Shown here: positions 33,790 to 45,684 of the stretch, piece after piece
How positions within the stretch are numbered: the stretch's first letter is position 1
Layout of the letters: each line of letters begins with the position of its first letter
Notes under the pieces: generated by a model
Database searches by the model: none
Told to the model about the DNA's origin: nothing
The model's input: the letters and a program-made list of their open reading frames with translations, nothing else
Translations under genes and position numbers: made by a program
Assembly (NCBI RefSeq): GCF_001565895.1
Contig: NZ_LSNE01000009.1
Location: 383,380-430,277 of the forward strand
Direction: 5' to 3'
Origin: Paraglaciecola hydrolytica
Lineage (GTDB): Bacteria; Pseudomonadota; Gammaproteobacteria; Enterobacterales; Alteromonadaceae
DNA: 46,898 nucleotides

Positions 33790-33823
33790 ATCGGATTTAT
33801 ATCCGATCGCCAGCGTCCGCTGG
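33790..33823 (+). promoter_or_regulatory. Two hairpins in the flagellin 1 5' UTR
   Basis: ATCGGAT-TTAT-ATCCGAT (33790-33807) and CCAGCG-TC-CGCTGG (33810-33823) are two adjacent perfect stem-loops between the sigma-28 promoter and the ribosome site (GTAGGAGAAC, 33834-33843). They may stabilise the message or control access to it. Confidence 0.6.
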
Positions 33824-33846
33824 ACTGAGAGTGTAGGAGAACAACC

Positions 33847-34674
33847 ATGGGTTTATATGTAAACACCAACGTTTCGTCGTTAAATGCGCAACGCCAACTT
33901 TTTAATTCAAGTACGTCATTAAACACGTCATTTGAACGTTTGTCGTCAGGTTTCAGGATCAACAGAGCTGCAGATGATGCTGCGGGTCTGCAAATTACCG
34001 ATCGTCTAACTACCCAGATTCAAGGTTTAAACCAAGCTGCCAGAAACGCCAATGATGCTATATCGTTAGCGCAAACTGCGGAAGGTGCCTTATCTGAAGT
34101 AACTGCTTCCTTACAACGTATACGTACCCTAGCGGTACAATCACAAAACGGTATTAATAACTCTGCTGACCGTTTGGCACTGCAAAAAGAAGTGTCAGCC
34201 CTTAAGTTAGAAATTAGCCGTATTTCAACTGATACCCAGTTTGGTACCACTAATATTCTTAAAGGAGACTTCTCAGCTAAGTTTTTAGTGGGAGCTAATG
34301 GTAACCAAAATATTTCTATTAACTTAGAAAAATCAGGTGGTTATGGCACATCAGGCTTGTTTGGTGGTGGTCCATTAACTGTTGCAACAGTAAGTGATGC
34401 GTCAGCCGCTCTGACTTCAGTATCCCAAGCGATCTCTACTATAGGTGCGGTACGTGCTGACTTGGGTGCTTTGCAAAACCGTTTTCAATCAACTATTCGT
34501 AACTTAACGAATATTTCTGAAAACGTATCAGGTGCAAGAAGTCGAATTAAAGATACAGACTTTGCTGCAGAAACGGCTGAATTGACCCGTAATCAGATTA
34601 TTCAGCAAGCCAGCTTAACCGTATTAAGTCAGGCTAATCAACGTCCACAAACTGCTCTATCTTTACTAGGTTAA
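33847..34674 (+). CDS. Flagellin 1 (class A)
   Basis: A 275-residue flagellin. N-terminal D0/D1 (MGLYVNTNVSSLNAQRQLFN, SFERLSSGFRINRAADDAAGLQI) and C-terminal (NRFQSTIRNLTNISENVSGARSRIKDTDFAAETAELTRNQIIQQASLTVLSQANQRPQTALSLLG) coiled helices are complete; the central surface-exposed part is short (about 40 residues), as in many marine polar flagellins. Very similar to flagellin 4. It has its own sigma-28 promoter and a strong terminator with an anti-SD stem-loop. Serines and threonines in the central part are possible sites for pseudaminic-acid glycosylation. Confidence 0.95.
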   Translation: MGLYVNTNVSSLNAQRQLFNSSTSLNTSFERLSSGFRINRAADDAAGLQITDRLTTQIQGLNQAARNANDAISLAQTAEGALSEVTASLQRIRTLAVQSQNGINNSADRLALQKEVSALKLEISRISTDTQFGTTNILKGDFSAKFLVGANGNQNISINLEKSGGYGTSGLFGGGPLTVATVSDASAALTSVSQAISTIGAVRADLGALQNRFQSTIRNLTNISENVSGARSRIKDTDFAAETAELTRNQIIQQASLTVLSQANQRPQTALSLLG

Positions 34675-34774
34675 TTAATCAATTAACCTAGGTTTCAAGA
34701 CCCATCTTCTGTTTGGGACTTAGAAGCCAGGGGGTAGTGAACTGGGTTGATAAGGGTCAAGCAGTCGAGAGTTT

Positions 34775-34801
34775 TGCTCACTCTCTCCTAACGAAAGAGC
34801 A
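34775..34801 (+). promoter_or_regulatory. Stem-loop with anti-Shine-Dalgarno loop after flagellin 1
   Basis: TGCTC/GAGCA closes a loop containing TCTCCTAACG (34784-34793), complementary over 10 nt to CGTTAGGAGA, the ribosome site of flagellin 2, and over 7 nt to that of flagellin 1. It lies 4 nt before the terminator. Two similar copies follow flagellin 3. Confidence 0.5.
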
Positions 34802-34805
34802 CTCT

Positions 34806-34830
34806 AGCCGGAGATTTCTCCGGCTTTTTT
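34806..34830 (+). terminator. Intrinsic terminator of flagellin 1
   Basis: AGCCGGAG-ATTT-CTCCGGCT followed by six T: 8-bp GC-rich perfect stem with U-run. Confidence 0.93.
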
Positions 34831-34884
34831 CAATAATATAACTTGTTGAATTTATTGATGATTTAAAAATAATTATTTTTTAAT

Positions 34885-34912
34885 TAAAGTATTTTTCATC
34901 CTAATACGATAC
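34885..34912 (+). promoter_or_regulatory. Possible sigma-28 promoter of flagellin 2
   Basis: TAAAGTAT and TACGATAC, with a 12-bp spacer rather than the usual 11. About 150 bp upstream of the start codon. Confidence 0.5.
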
Positions 34913-34933
34913 ATGGGCATAGACGTTACGCAT

Positions 34934-35024
34934 CTAATAAAAATAATAGCGAACGACTACACAGCGATCGAATAATAATAAAAGCACGATCCTGTAACCG
35001 TTAAGACACTAATAAAAATAATAG
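34934..35024 (+). repeat. 16-nt direct repeat in the flagellin 2 leader
   Basis: CTAATAAAAATAATAG occurs exactly at 34934-34949 and 35009-35024, 75 bp apart. An AATAATAATAAAA-type variant lies between them, and a similar one stands before flagellin 3. AU-rich single-stranded leader repeats could bind Hfq or a regulator. Confidence 0.6.
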
Positions 35025-35061
35025 TCTGGCGGCGCTTCAATAAAATCGTTAGGAGAAAAGT

Positions 35062-35892
35062 ATGAGTTTATTCGTTAACACGAATGTCTCGTCGTTGAAC
35101 GCTACACGTCAGCTGTTCACGTCGAACAACAATTTAAATACCGCGTTTGAGCGTTTGTCGTCCGGATTTCGTATTAATAGTGCGAAAGACGATGCGGCAG
35201 GTTTACAAATTTCCAATCGTCTTACCACCCAAGTTCTTGGTTTGAACATGGCTGTGCGTAATGCTAATGACGGCATTTCGCTAGCACAAACTGCTGAAGG
35301 CGCTATGAGTGAGATCACCAATGCCTTACAACGCATTCGTGTACTTGCTGTTCAAGCACAAAACGGTATTAATGGCTCGTCCGACCGCTTAGCGCTACAA
35401 AAAGAAGTCGCAGCACTTAAACAAGAAATCAGTCGTATTTCCACAACTACCCAATTTGGGGGCGTTAATATCCTCGATGGTATGTATTCATCTGCGTTTT
35501 TAGTCGGAGCTAATGCCGGTCAAACGATCAGTGTGAATATTTCTAGGGTCGGTGGTTATGGTACTTCCGGTTTGTTTAACGGTGCCAGTTTGAGTGTGGC
35601 GTCTATTCCTAGCGCTTCACGGGCATTAACCCAAGTATCCCAAGCTATTTCCATTATTGATGCTAAACGGGCTGACTTAGGTGCTATTCAAAACCGCTTT
35701 CAATCCACTATTCGAAATCTAAGCAGTATTGCTGAAAACGTCTCGGCGGCAAGAAGTCGTATTCGGGATACAGATTTTGCCGTTGAAACGGCAGAACTAA
35801 CCCGCTGGCAGATCATTCAACAGGCAAGTATTACCGTATTAGGGCAAGCAAATCAGCGCCCTCAAGCGGCATTGCAACTATTGCAAAGTTAA
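35062..35892 (+). CDS. Flagellin 2 (class B)
   Basis: A 276-residue flagellin with ribosome site CGTTAGGAGAAAA. Nearly identical to flagellin 3 over the whole length (differences are mainly in residues 80-150 and the central part), so the two come from a recent duplication. Class B differs from class A in the C-terminal helix, with LTRWQIIQQASITVLGQ instead of LTRNQIIQQASLTVLSQ, and in a conserved NISRVGGYGTSGLF central motif. No strong terminator is visible directly after it; a 572-bp structured gap follows. Confidence 0.95.
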   Translation: MSLFVNTNVSSLNATRQLFTSNNNLNTAFERLSSGFRINSAKDDAAGLQISNRLTTQVLGLNMAVRNANDGISLAQTAEGAMSEITNALQRIRVLAVQAQNGINGSSDRLALQKEVAALKQEISRISTTTQFGGVNILDGMYSSAFLVGANAGQTISVNISRVGGYGTSGLFNGASLSVASIPSASRALTQVSQAISIIDAKRADLGAIQNRFQSTIRNLSSIAENVSAARSRIRDTDFAVETAELTRWQIIQQASITVLGQANQRPQAALQLLQS

Positions 35893-35937
35893 CATTTCTA
35901 AAATTTAAGCAGGTTTAGGTTTATGAATAGCAAGGTT

Positions 35938-36110
35938 GAGCATTTGCGGGGGCAGGCTGCAACACAATATCCGTGGAATAGGGTCGTAGAGATAAATCCG
36001 CTCTAAATGCAAAGTGCGAGGGCGGGCTGCAAAAAGGCGGTTGAGAAGTCAATAAATAGCTTTAGAAAGAATAATTCGGTCGAATTGCAAAATGTGGGGG
36101 CAGGCTGCAA
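35938..36110 (+). repeat. Three copies of a GGGGGCAGGCTGCAA-type motif
   Basis: GCATTTGCGGGGGCAGGCTGCAA-, TGCAAAGTGCGAGGGCGGGCTGCAA- and TGCAAAATGTGGGGGCAGGCTGCAA-type copies end at about 35962, 36031 and 36110, spaced 70 and 78 bp. Their core GCAGGCTGC is a perfect palindrome around one base. The third is flanked by TCGGTCG/CGACCGA, a 7-bp stem. They occupy the 3' side of flagellin 2 and have no coding potential I can support. Confidence 0.75.
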
Positions 36111-36182
36111 CCGACCGAGGAATGACAAATTGCTAAGCAGTATCAACACTCGACTTATACAAAGAGATGGTTGAACAGCAAC

Positions 36183-36305
36183 TTACCAATGGGCTTATGC
36201 CTTATTGGTAAATCGCTGACAGACAAAAAAGATGCCAGGAGGTAGTGAGGTATTGAGGTACAGGCCACCTATCCTGTCTGTCAGCTGGAGCTTACGCTCT
36301 TTTTG
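36183..36305 (+). terminator. Structured region with hairpins before flagellin 3
   Basis: TTACCAAT/ATTGGTAA (36183-36190 with 36204-36211), then an 11-bp perfect pair GCTGACAGACA/TGTCTGTCAGC (36215-36225 with 36275-36285), then GGAGC-TTAC-GCTCT followed by T5 (36288-36305), a weak terminator. The middle contains GCCAGGAGGTAGTGA, which also occurs after flagellin 1 in variant form (GCCAGGGGGTAGTGA at 34724). Probably the 3' UTR of flagellin 2 or a small RNA. Confidence 0.5.
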
Positions 36306-36464
36306 CATTTGCTTTTGTGGTTCTAACACTTAACAAAGCGCTAACCAGGGTACCAGTTAGCAAATAGTAAGGTGCACTAAGTGTGCCAACTTTAACTTTG
36401 TTAATACCGAAAACATCGACATGTCAATAATAATAAAAAGTCGGTGCCAGGTTAGGAGAGAAAA

Positions 36465-37295
36465 ATGAGTTTATTTGTTAATACCAATGTGTCATCGCTT
36501 AATGCGACCAGGCAATTATTTACCTCAAATAACAATTTGAGTACGGCATTTGAACGTTTGTCCTCGGGTTTTAGGATCAACAGTGCCAAAGATGATGCTG
36601 CCGGTTTACAAATTTCCAACCGTTTAACCACACAGGTGCTCGGATTGAATATGGCAGTACGTAATGCTAACGATGGAATTTCGTTAGCGCAAACGGCAGA
36701 AGGTGCCTTAGCTGAAACCACCAATGCATTACAACGGATAAGGGTGTTGGCTGTTCAATCGCAAAACGGTATTAACAGTTCGGCTGACAGAATAGCCTTA
36801 CAAAAAGAAGTGGCAGCACTGAAAGCTGAAATTAGCCGCATAGCTTCAACTACCCAGTTTGGTGGTGTCGATATACTAAATGGGCTGTATTCTTCGGCAT
36901 TTTTAGTGGGAGCCAATGCAGGTCAGACTATCAGTGTCAATATTTCGCGAGTAGGTGGTTATGGTACATCAGGCTTGTTTGGTGGCGCAACGTTAAGTGT
37001 GGCGTCAATCCCAGATGCATCTCGTGCGTTAACTCAGGTGTCTGAGGCAATTTCAATAATTGACGCTAAACGGGCTGATTTGGGTGCTATTCAAAACCGT
37101 TTTCAGTCGACCATACGAAATTTGAGCAATATAGCGGAAAACGTTTCGGCGGCAAGAAGTCGCATACGAGATACGGACTTTGCCGTCGAAACGGCAGAAT
37201 TGACCCGTTGGCAGATTATCCAACAAGCGAGTATTACGGTGTTGGGACAAGCAAATCAGCGTCCACAATCAGCACTGCAATTACTGCAAGGCTAG
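36465..37295 (+). CDS. Flagellin 3 (class B)
   Basis: A 276-residue flagellin, close copy of flagellin 2, with ribosome site GGTTAGGAGAG. Complete N- and C-terminal helices, Trp variant in LTRWQ. I could not find a convincing sigma-28 site in the 300 bp upstream; a dyad GCTAAC-N10-GTTAGC (36340-36361) is present instead. Its control may differ from the other flagellins. It is followed by 1168 bp without a gene, holding two anti-SD/terminator units, a MITE-like repeat and the flagellin 4 promoter. Confidence 0.95.
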   Translation: MSLFVNTNVSSLNATRQLFTSNNNLSTAFERLSSGFRINSAKDDAAGLQISNRLTTQVLGLNMAVRNANDGISLAQTAEGALAETTNALQRIRVLAVQSQNGINSSADRIALQKEVAALKAEISRIASTTQFGGVDILNGLYSSAFLVGANAGQTISVNISRVGGYGTSGLFGGATLSVASIPDASRALTQVSEAISIIDAKRADLGAIQNRFQSTIRNLSNIAENVSAARSRIRDTDFAVETAELTRWQIIQQASITVLGQANQRPQSALQLLQG

Positions 37296-37499
37296 TTAGC
37301 TGAAAATGGATAAGTAGTTGGAACAAAAAAGAGAGTAGGAACTGAGAGGCCACTCTAAGTAGTGCAGGAACACTGCTGTTTATTGCCAAGGAAGGCGACA
37401 TTACCCGAATATAATTATTTTTAAGTGGCTAATTAAGTGGTGAGCAATAGATTTTGTTTCATACTTTGTAAGTAGCGTAATACTTAAAAATATACTAGT

Positions 37500-37556
37500 T
37501 TGCTCGTTCTCCTAACGTGAGCAAGTTGGTCGGGGCATTTGCCCCGGCCTTTTTTA
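37500..37556 (+). terminator. Anti-SD stem-loop plus terminator, copy A (after flagellin 3)
   Basis: First hairpin TTGCTC/GAGCAA (37500-37524) with loop GTTCTCCTAACGT; second hairpin GGTCGGGGC-ATTT-GCCCCGGCC (37528-37549) with T6, a strong intrinsic terminator. The first loop is complementary to the flagellin 2 ribosome site over 11 nt (CGTTAGGAGAA), to flagellin 1 over 9 (TAGGAGAAC) and to flagellin 3 over 9 (GTTAGGAGA). Confidence 0.85.
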
Positions 37557-37616
37557 ACTCATACAGGATGACTTTTTGAATGTAATAGCTATATTGCTAT
37601 TATCAAGAATAAAACG

Positions 37617-37690
37617 CCGACTAACAGGACTGAGAGTGTAGAAGTTTGGTTGAGAGGCCAGTATTCATCTCTAACCCTGCCAGTCGGACA
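37617..37690 (+). other. Possible scar of a lost flagellin gene or duplicated 3' UTR
   Basis: GGACTGAGAGTGTAG at 37627-37641 exactly repeats the flagellin 1 leader (33822-33836), but no flagellin follows. Instead, 60 bp later, copy B of the anti-SD/terminator unit begins. It also has GGTTGAGAG/CTCTAACC and CCGACT/AGTCGG pairs. Could be a leader joined to a trailer by deletion of a flagellin, or a repeated 3' UTR module. Confidence 0.4.
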
Positions 37691-37700
37691 GAAACCTTAT

Positions 37701-37757
37701 TTGCTCGTTCTCCTAACGTGAGCAAGTTGGTCGGGGTATTTGCCCCGGCCTTTTTTC
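37701..37757 (+). terminator. Anti-SD stem-loop plus terminator, copy B
   Basis: Same as copy A 201 bp upstream, with one base change in the terminator loop side (GGGGTATT for GGGGCATT). Stem TTGCTC/GAGCAA (37701-37725), loop GTTCTCCTAACGT unchanged, then GC-rich hairpin with T6. Confidence 0.85.
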
Positions 37758-37965
37758 TTTGGCTGATTTAATTAAGTCAGTCAAATAAAAAGTTAAACCT
37801 CGCCACGTATCGTGCATAAACTTTCGTTCAATAAATACTTAGCAATGCGTGTGCCAAATTTTAATTTGTTCAACGTTTACTTCAATATGTGTTTTGAATA
37901 TTGGCAATGATTTTAGAATCGTTGTTTTTTATCACTCCTCCCAAACCAAACCTAGACCTTTTAAT

Positions 37966-38463: not shown

Positions 38464-39288
38464 ATGACTTTATATGTTAATACCAACGTGTCGTCTTTGA
38501 ACGCTCAGCGCCAGCTATTTAATTCTGGGCAATCATTGAGCACATCTTTTGAAAGGTTGTCTTCAGGTTTTCGTATTAACCGCGCTGCAGATGATGCCGC
38601 AGGTTTACAAATATCTGATCGATTAACTACCCAGGTACAAGGTTTAAATCAAGCTGTTCGTAACGCAAACGACGCAATTTCATTAACCCAAACGGCCGAA
38701 GGTGCATTGGGCGAAGTAACAGCATCGTTACAACGTATTCGTGTATTGGCGGTACAATCGCAAAACGGTATTAACTCTTCTGCCGACCGCACAGCATTGC
38801 AGAAAGAAGTGTCTGCGCTAAAATTAGAAATTTCGCGAATTGCCACAGATACGCAGTTTGCAAATACTGATTTGTTGAAAGGCAAGTTCTCTGCAAAATT
38901 TTTGGTTGGGGCTAACGGTAACCAAAATATTTCTGTCACACTCAAACAAGGTGGTGGTTATGGCTCATCGGGTTTAAGTTTAGCCAAGACTGACGTTTCG
39001 ACAGCGACTGGCGCATCGGGAGCGTTGACCAGTATTGATAAAGCAATATCCGTTATCGGTGCTGCGCGCGCAGATTTAGGTGCCTTGCAAAACCGCTTTC
39101 AATCGACTATTCGTAACTTAAGTAATATTTCTGAAAATATAGCTGGTGCAAGATCACGTATCAAAGATACTGACTTTGCTGTTGAAACGGCTGAATTAAC
39201 CCGAAATCAGATTATTCAACAAGCGTCGTTATCAGTTTTAAGTTTAGCTAACCAACGTCCACAAACTGCGTTGTCATTGCTTAGCTAA
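38464..39288 (+). CDS. Flagellin 4 (class A)
   Basis: A 274-residue flagellin from ATG 38464 with AGGAGG upstream; a longer in-frame start at 38422 is unlikely since the flagellin N-terminus (MTLYVNTNVSSLNAQRQLFN) starts here. Most similar to flagellin 1; class A C-terminus LTRNQIIQQASLSVLSLANQRPQTALSLLS. Its ribosome site (CAGGAGG) shares only 5 nt with the anti-SD loops, unlike flagellins 1-3. A strong sigma-28 promoter precedes it; flaG follows. Confidence 0.95.
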   Translation: MTLYVNTNVSSLNAQRQLFNSGQSLSTSFERLSSGFRINRAADDAAGLQISDRLTTQVQGLNQAVRNANDAISLTQTAEGALGEVTASLQRIRVLAVQSQNGINSSADRTALQKEVSALKLEISRIATDTQFANTDLLKGKFSAKFLVGANGNQNISVTLKQGGGYGSSGLSLAKTDVSTATGASGALTSIDKAISVIGAARADLGALQNRFQSTIRNLSNISENIAGARSRIKDTDFAVETAELTRNQIIQQASLSVLSLANQRPQTALSLLS

Positions 39289-42108: not shown

Positions 42109-45100
42109 ATGCTAAAAAATATCAAATTGCATATTGAGCAGGACGAGCTACTGCAAGATTCCCTAGAAGCGAAGCTGGCTCAACATATCACCCACACAAA
42201 ACATCAAAATATTAATGCCTTTCAACGACATATCCCTTCTTTAGTGGCAATTATTGACAGTGCCCAAAGTCAGAATATTTCACTTATTTGTAATAAGTTT
42301 GAAAAATTTAATATCGTCGATTATGGATTGGGGCGAGTGCTTTACGGTTTTGATCCTGAAACTGAAATACGTCAGCAATTTGACTATTTCAGCCACCATG
42401 CTCCCTTTGTCGATTTTACTGGCGCCCCTAAAGTTCACACTACAGAACGTGATAATAATACACTCGAGGCTTTACCTAGTTATCAACATCATATGGCTTA
42501 TCAGGCCTTACCCAAAAGTGTGGACTTGCTGGTGGTGTTGGGCTTGGGATTAGGTCATCACATTAAGTTGTTGATTGAAAGCTGCCAGATTAAACACCTC
42601 ATTATTTACGAGCCTGAATTACAGTATTTTTCATGTTCGGTGCTTGTTACTCCATGGTTTGAAATTTTAGCCTCGGCAAAAGAAAAAGGCACTTCGCTTT
42701 ATTTTCAATTAGAAAAAGATGGCCGAGATCTCGTCGCTGACATATCTGAATTGCGTGAACATAACCAAGATGTTGCTGGCTTTTATCTTTATCAGCACTA
42801 CCATGCGCCGGTGTTTAATTCCTTGGTGAAAGCTTGCAAAAACAATAGTTGGTCAACGATTTATGATAAGGGTTTATCGTTTTCACTACAGGAATCAAAT
42901 GATGAATATTGCCCCTTGTGGACACCTCCTGCTGAATTAACAAGTTATCAAGATGTTTCGCCAGAAGACTCACAGTTTCAGCACAACTTGCACGCTTTTA
43001 AACATTATTTTCCAGATATTTATCAAGAGTTTAAGGATTATAAACCAAAAAATTGGTTGCCAGTAAAAACCGCAGGACAACAAATTAATCTACTTAAAAT
43101 GGATAGTTTGGCAAGCTGGTATGGTTCACATCCTGAAGAAGATTGTTTGTTAAATTTTAGCAATTACACCAAGCAACCTAACAAAGATGGTTTGGTACTG
43201 GGCTATTCTGGGCAAAAGTTACGGCACTATTTGCACTATGAATTTGTCCGTGAAGCAGAAGTTTTACTGGATGAAATAGAAGAAGAGCAAGCTGAACTAC
43301 CCTCCAACATCAAATCGATGATTTTGTTTGGGCTGGGTGTTGGTTATCAACTGGAGCATTTGATCAAACAACATCAGGTTGAAAAACTGTTTTTATGTGA
43401 ACCCAATCGTGATTTTTTCTATGCCTCGTTGTTTGCTATTGATTGGGCCGGCATATTAAGCACTATCGATGAGCAAAAAGGCCGTTTGTACATCAATATC
43501 GGCGATGATGGTACTAACCTGTTCCGTGATTTATTACATCAGTTTTATGCCATTGGCCCTTATATTCTTAGCCACACTTACTTTTATCAAAGCTACTATA
43601 ATTCATCCTTAAACAAGGCGATTGGCCAGTTACGTGAGCAGTTGCAGGTGGTTATTTCCATGGGTGAATACTTTGACCACGCCCGTTATGGTATAGCCCA
43701 TTCGAGCCAGGCGCTGCTACGTGAATACCCACATATGGTTAGAAATCCGCAGACTCAGCTGGATTATGAACATAAAGAAACGCCAATCTTTTTTGTAGGC
43801 AATGGCCCCTCACTTGATGCAGGTGCGCTTGAGCATATTAAAGAGTGGCAGGATAAAGCCATTATTGTGTCTTGTGGGACCTCGTTGCAGGTCTTAAAAA
43901 AGAACGGTATTACCCCCGATTTTCATGCCGAGATTGAACAAAACCGTTCTACTTTTGACTGGGCTGCGCGTATTGGCGATTTTGAATATCTGAAATCGGT
44001 GAGTTTAATTTCTTGTAATGGCATTCATCCCGATACTTGTGATTTGTACAAAGAGGTTTTTGTAGCCTTTAAAGAAGGGGAATCATCCACGGTTTCTACC
44101 TTGCGAGTTATAGGTGAAAAGCATTATGAGTCGCTCAGGTTTGCATTTCCCACAGTCACTAACTTTGCCTTGAATTTTTTTCTTAAACTGGGATTTAAGC
44201 AAATTTATTTGCTGGGGGTAGACTTAGGTTTTATTAACAACAAAAATCATCACTCAACCCAGTCAGGTTATTATAACGAGCAGGGTGAACCTCTGTATGA
44301 CTATGCGGCGCGCAATAATACTTCCTTAGTAGTGCCAGGCAATTTCAGGCCCACCGTATTTACCAAACACGAGTTTAAAATTGCTAAAATTGTGATGGAA
44401 CAATCCCTTAAAGAAGCAAAAGTGGAGTGTTACAACACCAGTAACGGCGCCAGAATTATTGGTTCAAACCCCTTACAATTAGACCAGATTTTATTGCTTA
44501 CCTCGGCTTCGCAAAAAGTCGAGTGTTTAAGTGTGATGAAGTCAAATTGTTTTAGAGTACTTAAACAAGAGAAGTTTGTTGAAAGATACGCTCTTACCTA
44601 CAGTGCAGATGCCTTACATGAAGAGTTTGCAGCATTTAAATCACTGATATCTCAACCGATTGAGAGCCTCAAAGAGGCCGAAGAGCTAGTCGAGAATCAA
44701 AAACAATTGTTGTTTAAAAGTTATCAGCAAGGGCAGTCACTGTTATTTTACTTTTTGTATGGCACACTAAATTTTGCCAATGCCGCTTTAAACAAAGTAG
44801 CTTATTCACTGCGTGATGAGCACTTTGCGCCAGATAGGTTTAATCGTTTGCGAGAAGTATGGTTAGAATACTTTGCAAAGATAACCCAGCAAGTTGAATT
44901 GCATGGGGAGCAATTTGATACCACCTCATCTTTTGTTACTCAGCGCATGCTTAAATGCTTAAAAAACGTTAAAACCGCCAAGCGAATTCTGGTGCTTAGC
45001 GATTCCGCTATTGTTCCCAATATTTATCATTCAGCAAATAAAACCTGGACAACTGATTTTGCATTCGAGTTTGCCACTAGTTCACAGTTTGTTGCTGACA

Positions 45101-45684
45101 GGCCATTTATTGCCGGCCAGTTTGACTATGTGATTGCTTATATTAATACTGACCTGGAACAACAGTTTAAGTTAGTCGCTGAACAAGTCAGAACGCAGTT
45201 GGGTACTATCCCGTTGTTGTGTATCTGTGAACAGATTATTCCTGTTCAGTTGTTAAGCCATAAACCTGATTTTGTGTGTTTTATGAGTGCGCAGAGCCAG
45301 TTTATGCAGCCGGACAGTGCTTATCAAAACAATGATGTCACACGTGCGGTACTGGCTTTGTTATTTATCCATGATTTCAGCAACTTTGACTTAATCGTAC
45401 CTAAATGCATTATGGACGATAACACCCAACTCCCCATATTGGCTGACGGTGGATATTTGCAAGATTTTCAAACCTTTGGCATTGATATAATGCTAGGTTT
45501 ACTTAAAGCTGATAAAACAATCAACAATGAAATTTTAAAAAATGGTTGCAGACCCGTGCCGCTGGGTAAGGGCTTGAATAAAAAATGGCTGTGTTTAAAA
45601 AATGAATCGCCAGCAACAGTAAAACAACTTAAATTAAAATTACTGGATAGATATCCTTATTTAAGCGAGGGACAAGATGTTTGA
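42109..45684 (+). CDS. Maf-type motility-associated glycosyltransferase, double N-terminal domain
   Basis: A 1191-residue protein. Residues about 530-760 form the MAF_flag10 (DUF115) domain, with GNGPSLDAG (564-572) and LISCNGIHPD. Maf proteins are needed to attach nonulosonic acids (pseudaminic or legionaminic) to flagellin in Campylobacter, Aeromonas and others. The N-terminal half is a tandem pair of similar Rossmann-like modules: GLGLGHHIKLLIESCQIKHLIIYEPE (145-) and GLGVGYQLEHLIKQHQVEKLFLCEPN (408-). The C-terminal about 400 residues are not recognised. Longer than ordinary Maf (600-750). It overlaps pseB by 8 bp, so the transferase and the sugar-nucleotide pathway are translationally linked. 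Confidence 0.92.
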   Translation: MLKNIKLHIEQDELLQDSLEAKLAQHITHTKHQNINAFQRHIPSLVAIIDSAQSQNISLICNKFEKFNIVDYGLGRVLYGFDPETEIRQQFDYFSHHAPFVDFTGAPKVHTTERDNNTLEALPSYQHHMAYQALPKSVDLLVVLGLGLGHHIKLLIESCQIKHLIIYEPELQYFSCSVLVTPWFEILASAKEKGTSLYFQLEKDGRDLVADISELREHNQDVAGFYLYQHYHAPVFNSLVKACKNNSWSTIYDKGLSFSLQESNDEYCPLWTPPAELTSYQDVSPEDSQFQHNLHAFKHYFPDIYQEFKDYKPKNWLPVKTAGQQINLLKMDSLASWYGSHPEEDCLLNFSNYTKQPNKDGLVLGYSGQKLRHYLHYEFVREAEVLLDEIEEEQAELPSNIKSMILFGLGVGYQLEHLIKQHQVEKLFLCEPNRDFFYASLFAIDWAGILSTIDEQKGRLYINIGDDGTNLFRDLLHQFYAIGPYILSHTYFYQSYYNSSLNKAIGQLREQLQVVISMGEYFDHARYGIAHSSQALLREYPHMVRNPQTQLDYEHKETPIFFVGNGPSLDAGALEHIKEWQDKAIIVSCGTSLQVLKKNGITPDFHAEIEQNRSTFDWAARIGDFEYLKSVSLISCNGIHPDTCDLYKEVFVAFKEGESSTVSTLRVIGEKHYESLRFAFPTVTNFALNFFLKLGFKQIYLLGVDLGFINNKNHHSTQSGYYNEQGEPLYDYAARNNTSLVVPGNFRPTVFTKHEFKIAKIVMEQSLKEAKVECYNTSNGARIIGSNPLQLDQILLLTSASQKVECLSVMKSNCFRVLKQEKFVERYALTYSADALHEEFAAFKSLISQPIESLKEAEELVENQKQLLFKSYQQGQSLLFYFLYGTLNFANAALNKVAYSLRDEHFAPDRFNRLREVWLEYFAKITQQVELHGEQFDTTSSFVTQRMLKCLKNVKTAKRILVLSDSAIVPNIYHSANKTWTTDFAFEFATSSQFVADRPFIAGQFDYVIAYINTDLEQQFKLVAEQVRTQLGTIPLLCICEQIIPVQLLSHKPDFVCFMSAQSQFMQPDSAYQNNDVTRAVLALLFIHDFSNFDLIVPKCIMDDNTQLPILADGGYLQDFQTFGIDIMLGLLKADKTINNEILKNGCRPVPLGKGLNKKWLCLKNESPATVKQLKLKLLDRYPYLSEGQDV

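What the first reader, a model, noticed from the sequence alone, without database searches (positions are those of the whole stretch)
34775..37757. Three 3'-UTR stem-loops display an anti-Shine-Dalgarno loop matching flagellin ribosome sites
Just before the terminator of flagellin 1 (34775-34801) and in two units after flagellin 3 (37500-37524, 37701-37725) a short stem exposes TCTCCTAACG. Its complement is CGTTAGGAGA, which is the ribosome site of flagellin 2 (11 nt with copies A and B), and overlaps those of flagellins 1 (9 nt) and 3 (9 nt). Flagellin 4 (CAGGAGG) shares only 5 nt. Seen directly: the complementarity and the stem-loop/terminator layout. Inference: 3'-UTR-derived RNAs, released or in cis, could sequester flagellin ribosome sites and set the ratio among the four flagellins. 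Anti-SD loops in small RNAs are known in other bacteria, but I know of none described for flagellin trailers like this.
Basis: partly seen in the sequence, partly recalled or inferred. Interest (0 to 1): 0.75.

Follow-up and report, generated by a model that had tools for sequence, protein, structure and literature searches.

The report
Two-strand RNA control of bacterial flagellins
Behind the flagellin genes of some marine bacteria lie conserved RNA hairpins and, on the opposite strand, a predicted small RNA gene, complementary to the ribosome sites of different flagellin genes, so they could set how much of each filament protein is made; none of this has been tested in cells.

Summary
The three stem-loops are real and where stated. 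Their loop, CTCCTAACG, is complementary to the ribosome sites of flagellins 2 and 3 (9-11 nt), less to flagellin 1, and only 5 nt to flagellin 4. In this window alone that is within chance for an unanchored search (3 of 40 shuffles do as well). Relatives decide: the hairpin with its terminator is in 94 of 395 family genomes (18 genera; 5 further hits had no flagellin nearby), behind a flagellin in all 55 flagellin-bearing regions fetched. Loop and leader change together: one flanking base covaries (p<0.0001; genus-collapsed 0.0018), and another family has TCTCCTATC facing GATAGGAGA in 12 of 12 genomes. The minus strand of the copy-B region carries a sigma-54-like site (all 52 loci), a helix whose wobbles fit only minus-strand RNA (141 to 0), and an 18-nt antisense of the flagellin 1 leader that tracks it in 49 loci. 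Best reading: a sigma-54-dependent small RNA against flagellin 1, overlapping trailer hairpins against flagellins 2 and 3. No Rfam match; nothing like it in my literature searches. Expression and repression are untested.

The parts
33822..33839 (+). Flagellin 1 leader target GGACTGAGAGTGTAGGAG (includes the SD); start codon at 33847
33847..34674 (+). Flagellin 1
   Evidence: Pfam Flagellin_N and Flagellin_C
34769..34830 (+). Trailer hairpin of flagellin 1 (loop TCTCTCCTAACG) plus terminator
   Evidence: (R1 34.0 bits)
35047..35056 (+). Flagellin 2 ribosome site CGTTAGGAGA, complement of the loops
35062..35892 (+). Flagellin 2
36451..36461 (+). Flagellin 3 ribosome site GTTAGGAGAGA, complement of the loops
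36465..37295 (+). Flagellin 3
37495..37554 (+). Copy A: anti-SD hairpin plus terminator
   Evidence: (83.6 bits)
37614..37687 (-). Module of the predicted minus-strand RNA: 12-bp helix 37617-37628 with 37676-37687, then a T tract on the minus strand (terminator)
37627..37644 (-). Antisense of the flagellin 1 leader in the minus-strand RNA (18 nt, one G.U)
37696..37755 (+). Copy B: anti-SD hairpin plus terminator
   Evidence: (84.2 bits)
37605..37830 (-). Predicted sigma-54-dependent small RNA, about 220 nt (ends inferred from the promoter box and the T tract)
37842..37856 (-). sigma-54 site TGGCACACGCATTGC, 10 of 10 consensus bases; only exact match in the window
38464..39288 (+). Flagellin 4 (leader CAGGAGG, not matched by the loops)

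Best explanation
A two-strand riboregulator of flagellin translation. Plus strand: the trailers of flagellins 1 and 3 end in hairpins whose loop is antisense to the ribosome sites of flagellins 2 and 3 (less of 1). As 3'-UTR-derived RNAs, or within the mRNAs, they would block translation initiation and act as feedback on those flagellins, sparing flagellin 4. Minus strand: facing flagellin 3, a sigma-54 promoter drives an RNA of about 220 nt whose 3' region pairs over 18 nt with the flagellin 1 leader across its SD and would repress flagellin 1, which has a sigma-28-like promoter, during the earlier sigma-54 stage. Trailer RNA of flagellin 3 that extends through the module is antisense to this RNA and could remove it. 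Shown here: conserved sequence, strand-specific structure, covariation, promoter-like sites. Inferred: that the RNAs exist, that they repress, the timing and the removal step.
For: Plus hairpin: 99 of 395 family genomes hit, 94 after removing 5 without a flagellin nearby. GTTAGGAG flagellin leaders in 82 of these 94 genomes and in 5 of the 121 other genomes with AGGAG flagellin leaders; these 5 have diverged hairpins on inspection (split counted by hand). Loop 3' flank against flagellin 2 leader: 41 of 52 Watson-Crick, permuted mean 28.2, p<0.0001; genus-collapsed 18 of 24, p=0.0018. Compensated loops: TCTCCTATC/GATAGGAGA in 12 of 12 f9 genomes; g50 12-15 nt in 4 genomes, with a second pair GTACTCACTCC/GGAGTGAGTAC in 3 of them; f25 11-15 pairs including one G.U in 4 of 4 loci. 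Both loop types rank flagellins 2 and 3 first and second of 39 ORF starts, flagellin 1 fourth, flagellin 4 19th and 13th. Minus RNA: sigma-54 site scores 8 or more of 10 beside 52 of 55 strong hairpins, i.e. in all 52 loci, against 5 of 55 on plus and 3 of 55 shuffled; helix 439 WC, 141 minus-strand G.U, 0 plus-strand G.U, against 44 plus-strand and 0 minus-strand G.U in the plus terminator; antisense to leader 1: 773 WC, 77 G.U, 23 transversions, 9 A.C in 49 loci; leader 1 is its best partner of 39 (-46.4, next -34.4 kcal/mol). f9: site in 12 of 12, minus-strand stem with T tract, pairing to flaB -39.7 to -47.1 against flaA -17.9 to -29.2.
Against: No RNA data. Unanchored, the loop complementarity of the window (3 of 40 shuffles) and of many single relatives is within chance. 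The loop's 5' flank does not covary (p=0.55). Permutations do not correct fully for relatedness; the leader 1 antisense test with wobble gives only p=0.005. A non-flagellin start is nearly as good for the copy-B loop as flagellin 2 (-16.8 against -16.9), and energies ignore accessibility. Clades with flagellins but no such pair: g10, g17, g42, f12, f15, f2. Strand evidence for the anti-SD hairpin itself is weak: 32 of its 37 plus-G.U cells are at the outermost pair, against 2 A.C. Loop-leader covariation alone cannot tell pairing from a shared sequence on the minus RNA. Single sigma-54 scores of 8 occur by chance. In the window terminator A lies before the module, so removal of the minus RNA by flagellin 3 trailers would need read-through.
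Confidence: 0.68

Rival explanations
1. Only the plus strand matters: trailer hairpins give feedback on flagellins 2 and 3, and the minus-strand features are not an expressed trans-acting RNA (at most antisense or interference at the flagellin 3 end).
For: Hairpins without the minus-strand site exist: the trailer of flagellin 1 in most loci, copy A, and g50.
Against: Minus-strand wobble pattern 141 to 0, sigma-54 site in all 52 loci, wobble-biased match to leader 1.
Confidence: 0.14
2. The plus hairpin is a protein-binding or mRNA-stabilising trailer element; its match to ribosome sites is incidental.
For: The genus hairpin stem and loop never vary in 23 units; the 8-mer match is common genome-wide; the window alone is not significant.
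Against: Loops change with leaders outside the SD core, in f9, g50 and f25 and at the 3' flank within the family.
Confidence: 0.1
3. Leader copies in trailers are leftovers of gene conversion or unequal crossing-over among tandem flagellins.
For: Tandem flagellins and tandem copies A and B; leader copies occur exactly once outside the leader in 6 of 6 genomes tested.
Against: Conserved over many genera at a fixed place, differences biased to wobble (77 G.U against 9 A.C), embedded in a strand-specific helix.
Confidence: 0.06

Closest known systems
FliX, 3'-UTR RNA of E. coli fliC (PMC10578931; abstract, outline and section 9 read)
   Same: RNA from a flagellin 3' end that lowers flagellin
   Different: FliX pairs inside the fliC coding sequence; here a hairpin loop matches ribosome sites of several flagellins, and an opposite-strand RNA adds another target
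CJnc230 and CJnc170 (FlmR) of Campylobacter jejuni (PMC11187230; abstract and passages)
   Same: RpoN- and FliA-dependent small RNAs in flagellar assembly; CJnc230 derives from flgE mRNA and has a potential anti-SD CCUU
   Different: Direct targets named are flgM and Cj1387c, not flagellin leaders; anti-SD in a single-stranded stretch; different locus
A C. jejuni small RNA with a cis-encoded antagonist (PMC8687705; title and start of abstract in a listing)
   Same: A small RNA and an antisense antagonist from one locus
   Different: No link to flagellins seen; no homology tested
Anti-SD hairpin-loop small RNAs such as CyaR, RsaE and alphaproteobacterial CUCCU-loop RNAs (recalled, no call)
   Same: Pyrimidine-rich stretch pairing with SD sequences
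   Different: Here the pairing extends beyond the SD and covaries with one gene family
Ordered FlaA/FlaB filament of Shewanella putrefaciens (PMC6299084; passages)
   Same: Needs staged flagellin synthesis; the authors postulate an unknown transcriptional and posttranscriptional shut-off of flaA
   Different: No RNA proposed there; Shewanella was not identified or tested here

Membership tests
3'-UTR-derived small RNA (FliX-like) | Element between stop codon and intrinsic terminator of an mRNA | tested here: met
3'-UTR-derived small RNA (FliX-like) | Accumulates as a processed RNA, usually Hfq- or ProQ-bound | not testable with these tools
   No RNA data
FliX | Pairs within the flagellin coding sequence | not tested
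   Only leaders and start regions were compared
Anti-SD loop small RNA | SD-complementary sequence in a hairpin loop | tested here: met
sigma-54-dependent small RNA gene | TGGCAC-N5-TTGC before the RNA | tested here: met
sigma-54-dependent small RNA gene | Intrinsic terminator on the same strand | tested here: inconclusive
   Helix with minus-strand wobble and a run of at least 3 T within 8 nt in 52 of 52 modules, clearer in f9; but the generic terminator scan of the window did not list it
sigma-54-dependent small RNA gene | RpoN-dependent transcript | not testable with these tools
   No RNA data
Any family of Rfam 15 | Match at the gathering score | tested here: not met
   (window): only a tRNA elsewhere. 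(E-value mode): nothing near its gathering score over this element; a lysine riboswitch elsewhere in L156

The most novel reading that the evidence does not exclude
One intergenic stretch works as a flagellin-type switch: a sigma-54-driven RNA on one strand holds flagellin 1 (flaB in f9) silent during hook-basal-body assembly; when flagellin 3 (flaA in f9) is transcribed, its trailer removes that RNA by full complementarity and presents an anti-SD loop that restrains its own class. Filament composition would thus be ordered by two overlapping, opposite RNAs, in two families and perhaps a third (f25).
Probability: 0.4. Interest if true: 0.88.

Novelty: new variant of a known kind. Interest (0 to 1): 0.78.

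Why it matters
Many flagellated bacteria carry several flagellins, and how their order and ratio are set is open; work on Shewanella putrefaciens postulates an unknown, partly posttranscriptional shut-off of one flagellin (PMC6299084, passages). This locus offers a concrete RNA mechanism with predicted target nucleotides, strand and promoter class, so single-base tests are possible. It is also a clear case in which the two strands of one short stretch each seem to be under RNA-structure constraint.

Tried and rejected
Specificity by the 8-mer alone: not specific (14 sites, reversed control 13; 6 non-flagellin ORFs of 110-501 aa; five of the six scanned with Pfam, no flagellar family). Unanchored leader-trailer search per genome: mostly not significant on its own. 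Covariation of the loop's 5' flank: none. A separate trans RNA complementary to the leader copies: in 3 f9 and 3 f1 genomes the only exact sites are the leader and the trailer copy, others have 1-2 mismatches; the opposite strand of the copy itself is the simpler answer. A plus-strand reading of the module's helix: rejected by the A.C/G.U asymmetry. The module as sponge of the flagellin 1 trailer hairpin: R1 finds no such hairpin in several loci that keep the module. sigma-54 sites before the flagellin genes: no score of 9 or 10, no excess over shuffles to speak of; fla1 and fla4 types have sigma-28-like sites. R1 hits without a flagellin nearby (G072, G136, G236, G370, G320) are treated as false, although G320 has a CTCCTAAC loop. 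sigma-54-like sites near the weak hairpins: 3 of 33 score 8 or more, L084 (which lies behind its third flagellin), L076 and L089. f25: minus-RNA pairing with leaders 2/3 has no shuffle control, and its sites score 8 in 3 of 4 loci, with plus-strand 8s in two of these. g20 rests on one genome and 9 nt (2 of 40 shuffles reach its best score). Rows left out: of 31 units, 24 went into A1 and 23 into A2 (without the flagellin 1 copy; two truncated units and five others unused); of 53 modules, 50 into A4; of 52 loci, three (L080, L091, L098) whose leader the script mislocated; for L080 and L091 searches show matching variants. Rows misregistered (such as L076, L097, L106) were kept; one search has further misregistered rows and is superseded. 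Of the 94 hairpin genomes, large regions were fetched for 55.
Full report
WHAT IS THERE. The window is probably from Paraglaciecola (Alteromonadaceae): of the 10 listed loci with two copies, 9 are titled Paraglaciecola (inference; my own record is unnamed). Four flagellins are followed by flaG, fliD and fliS (Pfam). TCTCCTAACG lies at 34784, 37508 and 37709, in stems before intrinsic terminators. Searched without anchoring, 3 of 40 shuffles score as high as the window, so the case rests on relatives.

THE PLUS-STRAND HAIRPIN IS A CONSERVED ELEMENT. A blastn of copy A hit 19 of 22 genomes of the genus. In 23 aligned units the hairpin stem and the loop CTCCTAACG never vary, while the terminator stem covaries (5 of 8 pairs with a change on both sides; 0 of 500 shuffles as high). 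A covariance model (R1) hit 99 of 395 family genomes in 22 of 52 genera. I fetched 60 regions: in 55 the best hit lies 3' of a flagellin, and 5 (four further genera) have no flagellin nearby, which leaves 94 genomes and 18 genera. The fullest order is fla1 (leader GGACTGAGAGTGTAGGAG) - weak hairpin - fla2 (CGTTAGGAG) - fla3 (GTTAGGAG) - strong hairpin - fla4 (CAGGAGG or CTAGGAGG); many loci lack one gene or the weak hairpin. In genomes of 84,980 species the strict pattern gave 90 stretches; of the 80 listed nearly all bear Alteromonadaceae names, one is titled Actinomycetes (L187, not followed up).

LOOP AND LEADER CHANGE TOGETHER. GTTAGGAG before a flagellin start occurs in 87 of 395 genomes, 82 of them among the 94 with the hairpin; AGGAG before a flagellin start occurs in 215 of 395, which leaves 121 without an accepted hairpin hit, and only 5 of these have GTTAGGAG (split counted by hand). 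Those 5 proved to have diverged hairpins: four g50 genomes whose loops pair over 12-15 nt with a leader, three of them with a second trailer carrying GTACTCACTCC against its own leader GGAGTGAGTAC, and one g24 genome with 9 nt. In family f9, loop TCTCCTATC faces leader GATAGGAGA in 12 of 12 genomes. In f25, 4 of 4 loci pair over 11-15 positions with one G.U. g20 (one genome) has TCTCCTGAG/CTCAGGAGA. Within the main family the base after CTCCTAAC matches the base before GTTAGGAG of the first such leader in 41 of 52 loci (permuted 28.2; p<0.0001; genus-collapsed 18 of 24, p=0.0018); the base on the loop's other side does not covary (p=0.55). g10, g17, g42, f12, f15 and f2 gave no convincing pair.

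THE MINUS-STRAND RNA. Upstream of copy B, and of the strong hairpin in the other genera, lies a conserved module of about 75 nt holding a copy of the fla1 leader. I first read it as a plus-strand mimic. Three results turn it over. (i) In 50 aligned sequences its 12-bp helix has 439 Watson-Crick cells, 141 A.C cells (G.U on the minus strand), 11 others and no plus-strand G.U, whereas the plus terminator has 44 G.U and no A.C. The module folds better as minus strand in 41 of 50, the hairpin with its terminator better as plus in 40 of 50. (ii) On the minus strand the helix is followed by a short T run in 52 of 52 modules located, although the generic terminator scan did not list it. (iii) Within 220 nt after the strong hairpin a minus-strand sigma-54 site scores at least 8 of 10 for 52 of 55 hairpins, so in all 52 loci; the misses are extra tandem copies (plus strand 5 of 55, shuffled 3 of 55). 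In the window it is exact and unique. The weak hairpins have it in 3 of 33 cases. The RNA is antisense to 18 nt of the fla1 leader: 773 Watson-Crick, 77 G.U, 23 transversions, 9 A.C over 49 loci; some variants co-occur (L077 and L114; L080 and L091), but the permutation test with wobble gives only p=0.005. Of 39 ORF starts in the window, leader 1 is its best partner (-46.4, next -34.4 kcal/mol, no accessibility term). In f9 the layout recurs with another module: site in 12 of 12, a minus-strand stem with a T run, and pairing to flaB rather than flaA. In f25 sites score 8-10 in 4 of 4 loci, which is weak.

MECHANISM. Most likely both RNAs block ribosome binding: trailer loops on fla2/fla3 (feedback and cross-talk), the minus RNA on fla1. 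fla1 and fla4 types have sigma-28-like promoters (49 of 51 and 43 of 44 with 10 or more of 12 matches; shuffles 11 of 194), fla2/3 types in 42 of 82, so a sigma-54 RNA would act at an earlier stage. Trailer RNA running through the module is antisense to the minus RNA and may clear it; in the window that needs read-through of terminator A. Existence of the RNAs, direction of the effect, cis or trans action and timing are inference.

KNOWN AND NEW. No Rfam family covers the element. The literature searches (open-licence PMC papers only) gave FliX and CJnc230 as nearest in kind, and none that I saw describes this. As an RNA locus it is a new variant of known kinds: anti-SD small RNAs, 3'-UTR RNAs and convergent antisense pairs.

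Noticed in passing
window 37331-37356: GAGAGTAGGAACTGAGAGGCCACTCT echoes the near-invariant TTGAGAGGCCAGT of the module; similar stretches precede the module in L074, L076, L081, L089, L080 and L091. Possibly a second contact of the minus RNA.
   Followed up: no
window, 152 nt before the flagellin 1 ATG and 208 nt before that of flagellin 4: sigma-28-like TAAA-N15-GTCGATAC and TAAA-N15-GTCGATAA, implying long leaders.
   Followed up: partly
L161 9085-9151 (G320): A lone terminator-like hairpin with a CTCCTAAC loop; no flagellin found in the 19 kb around it.
   Followed up: partly
L187: A contig titled Actinomycetes MAG holds the hairpin pattern; mis-binning or chance possible.
   Followed up: no
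G653 and G680 (family f3): 28 and 48 AGGAG-led flagellin-like starts in one genome.
   Followed up: no
L156 7402-7576: Lysine riboswitch near the flagellin cluster.
   Followed up: no
window 42109-45684: Large Maf-like flagellin glycosyltransferase after fliS.
   Followed up: no
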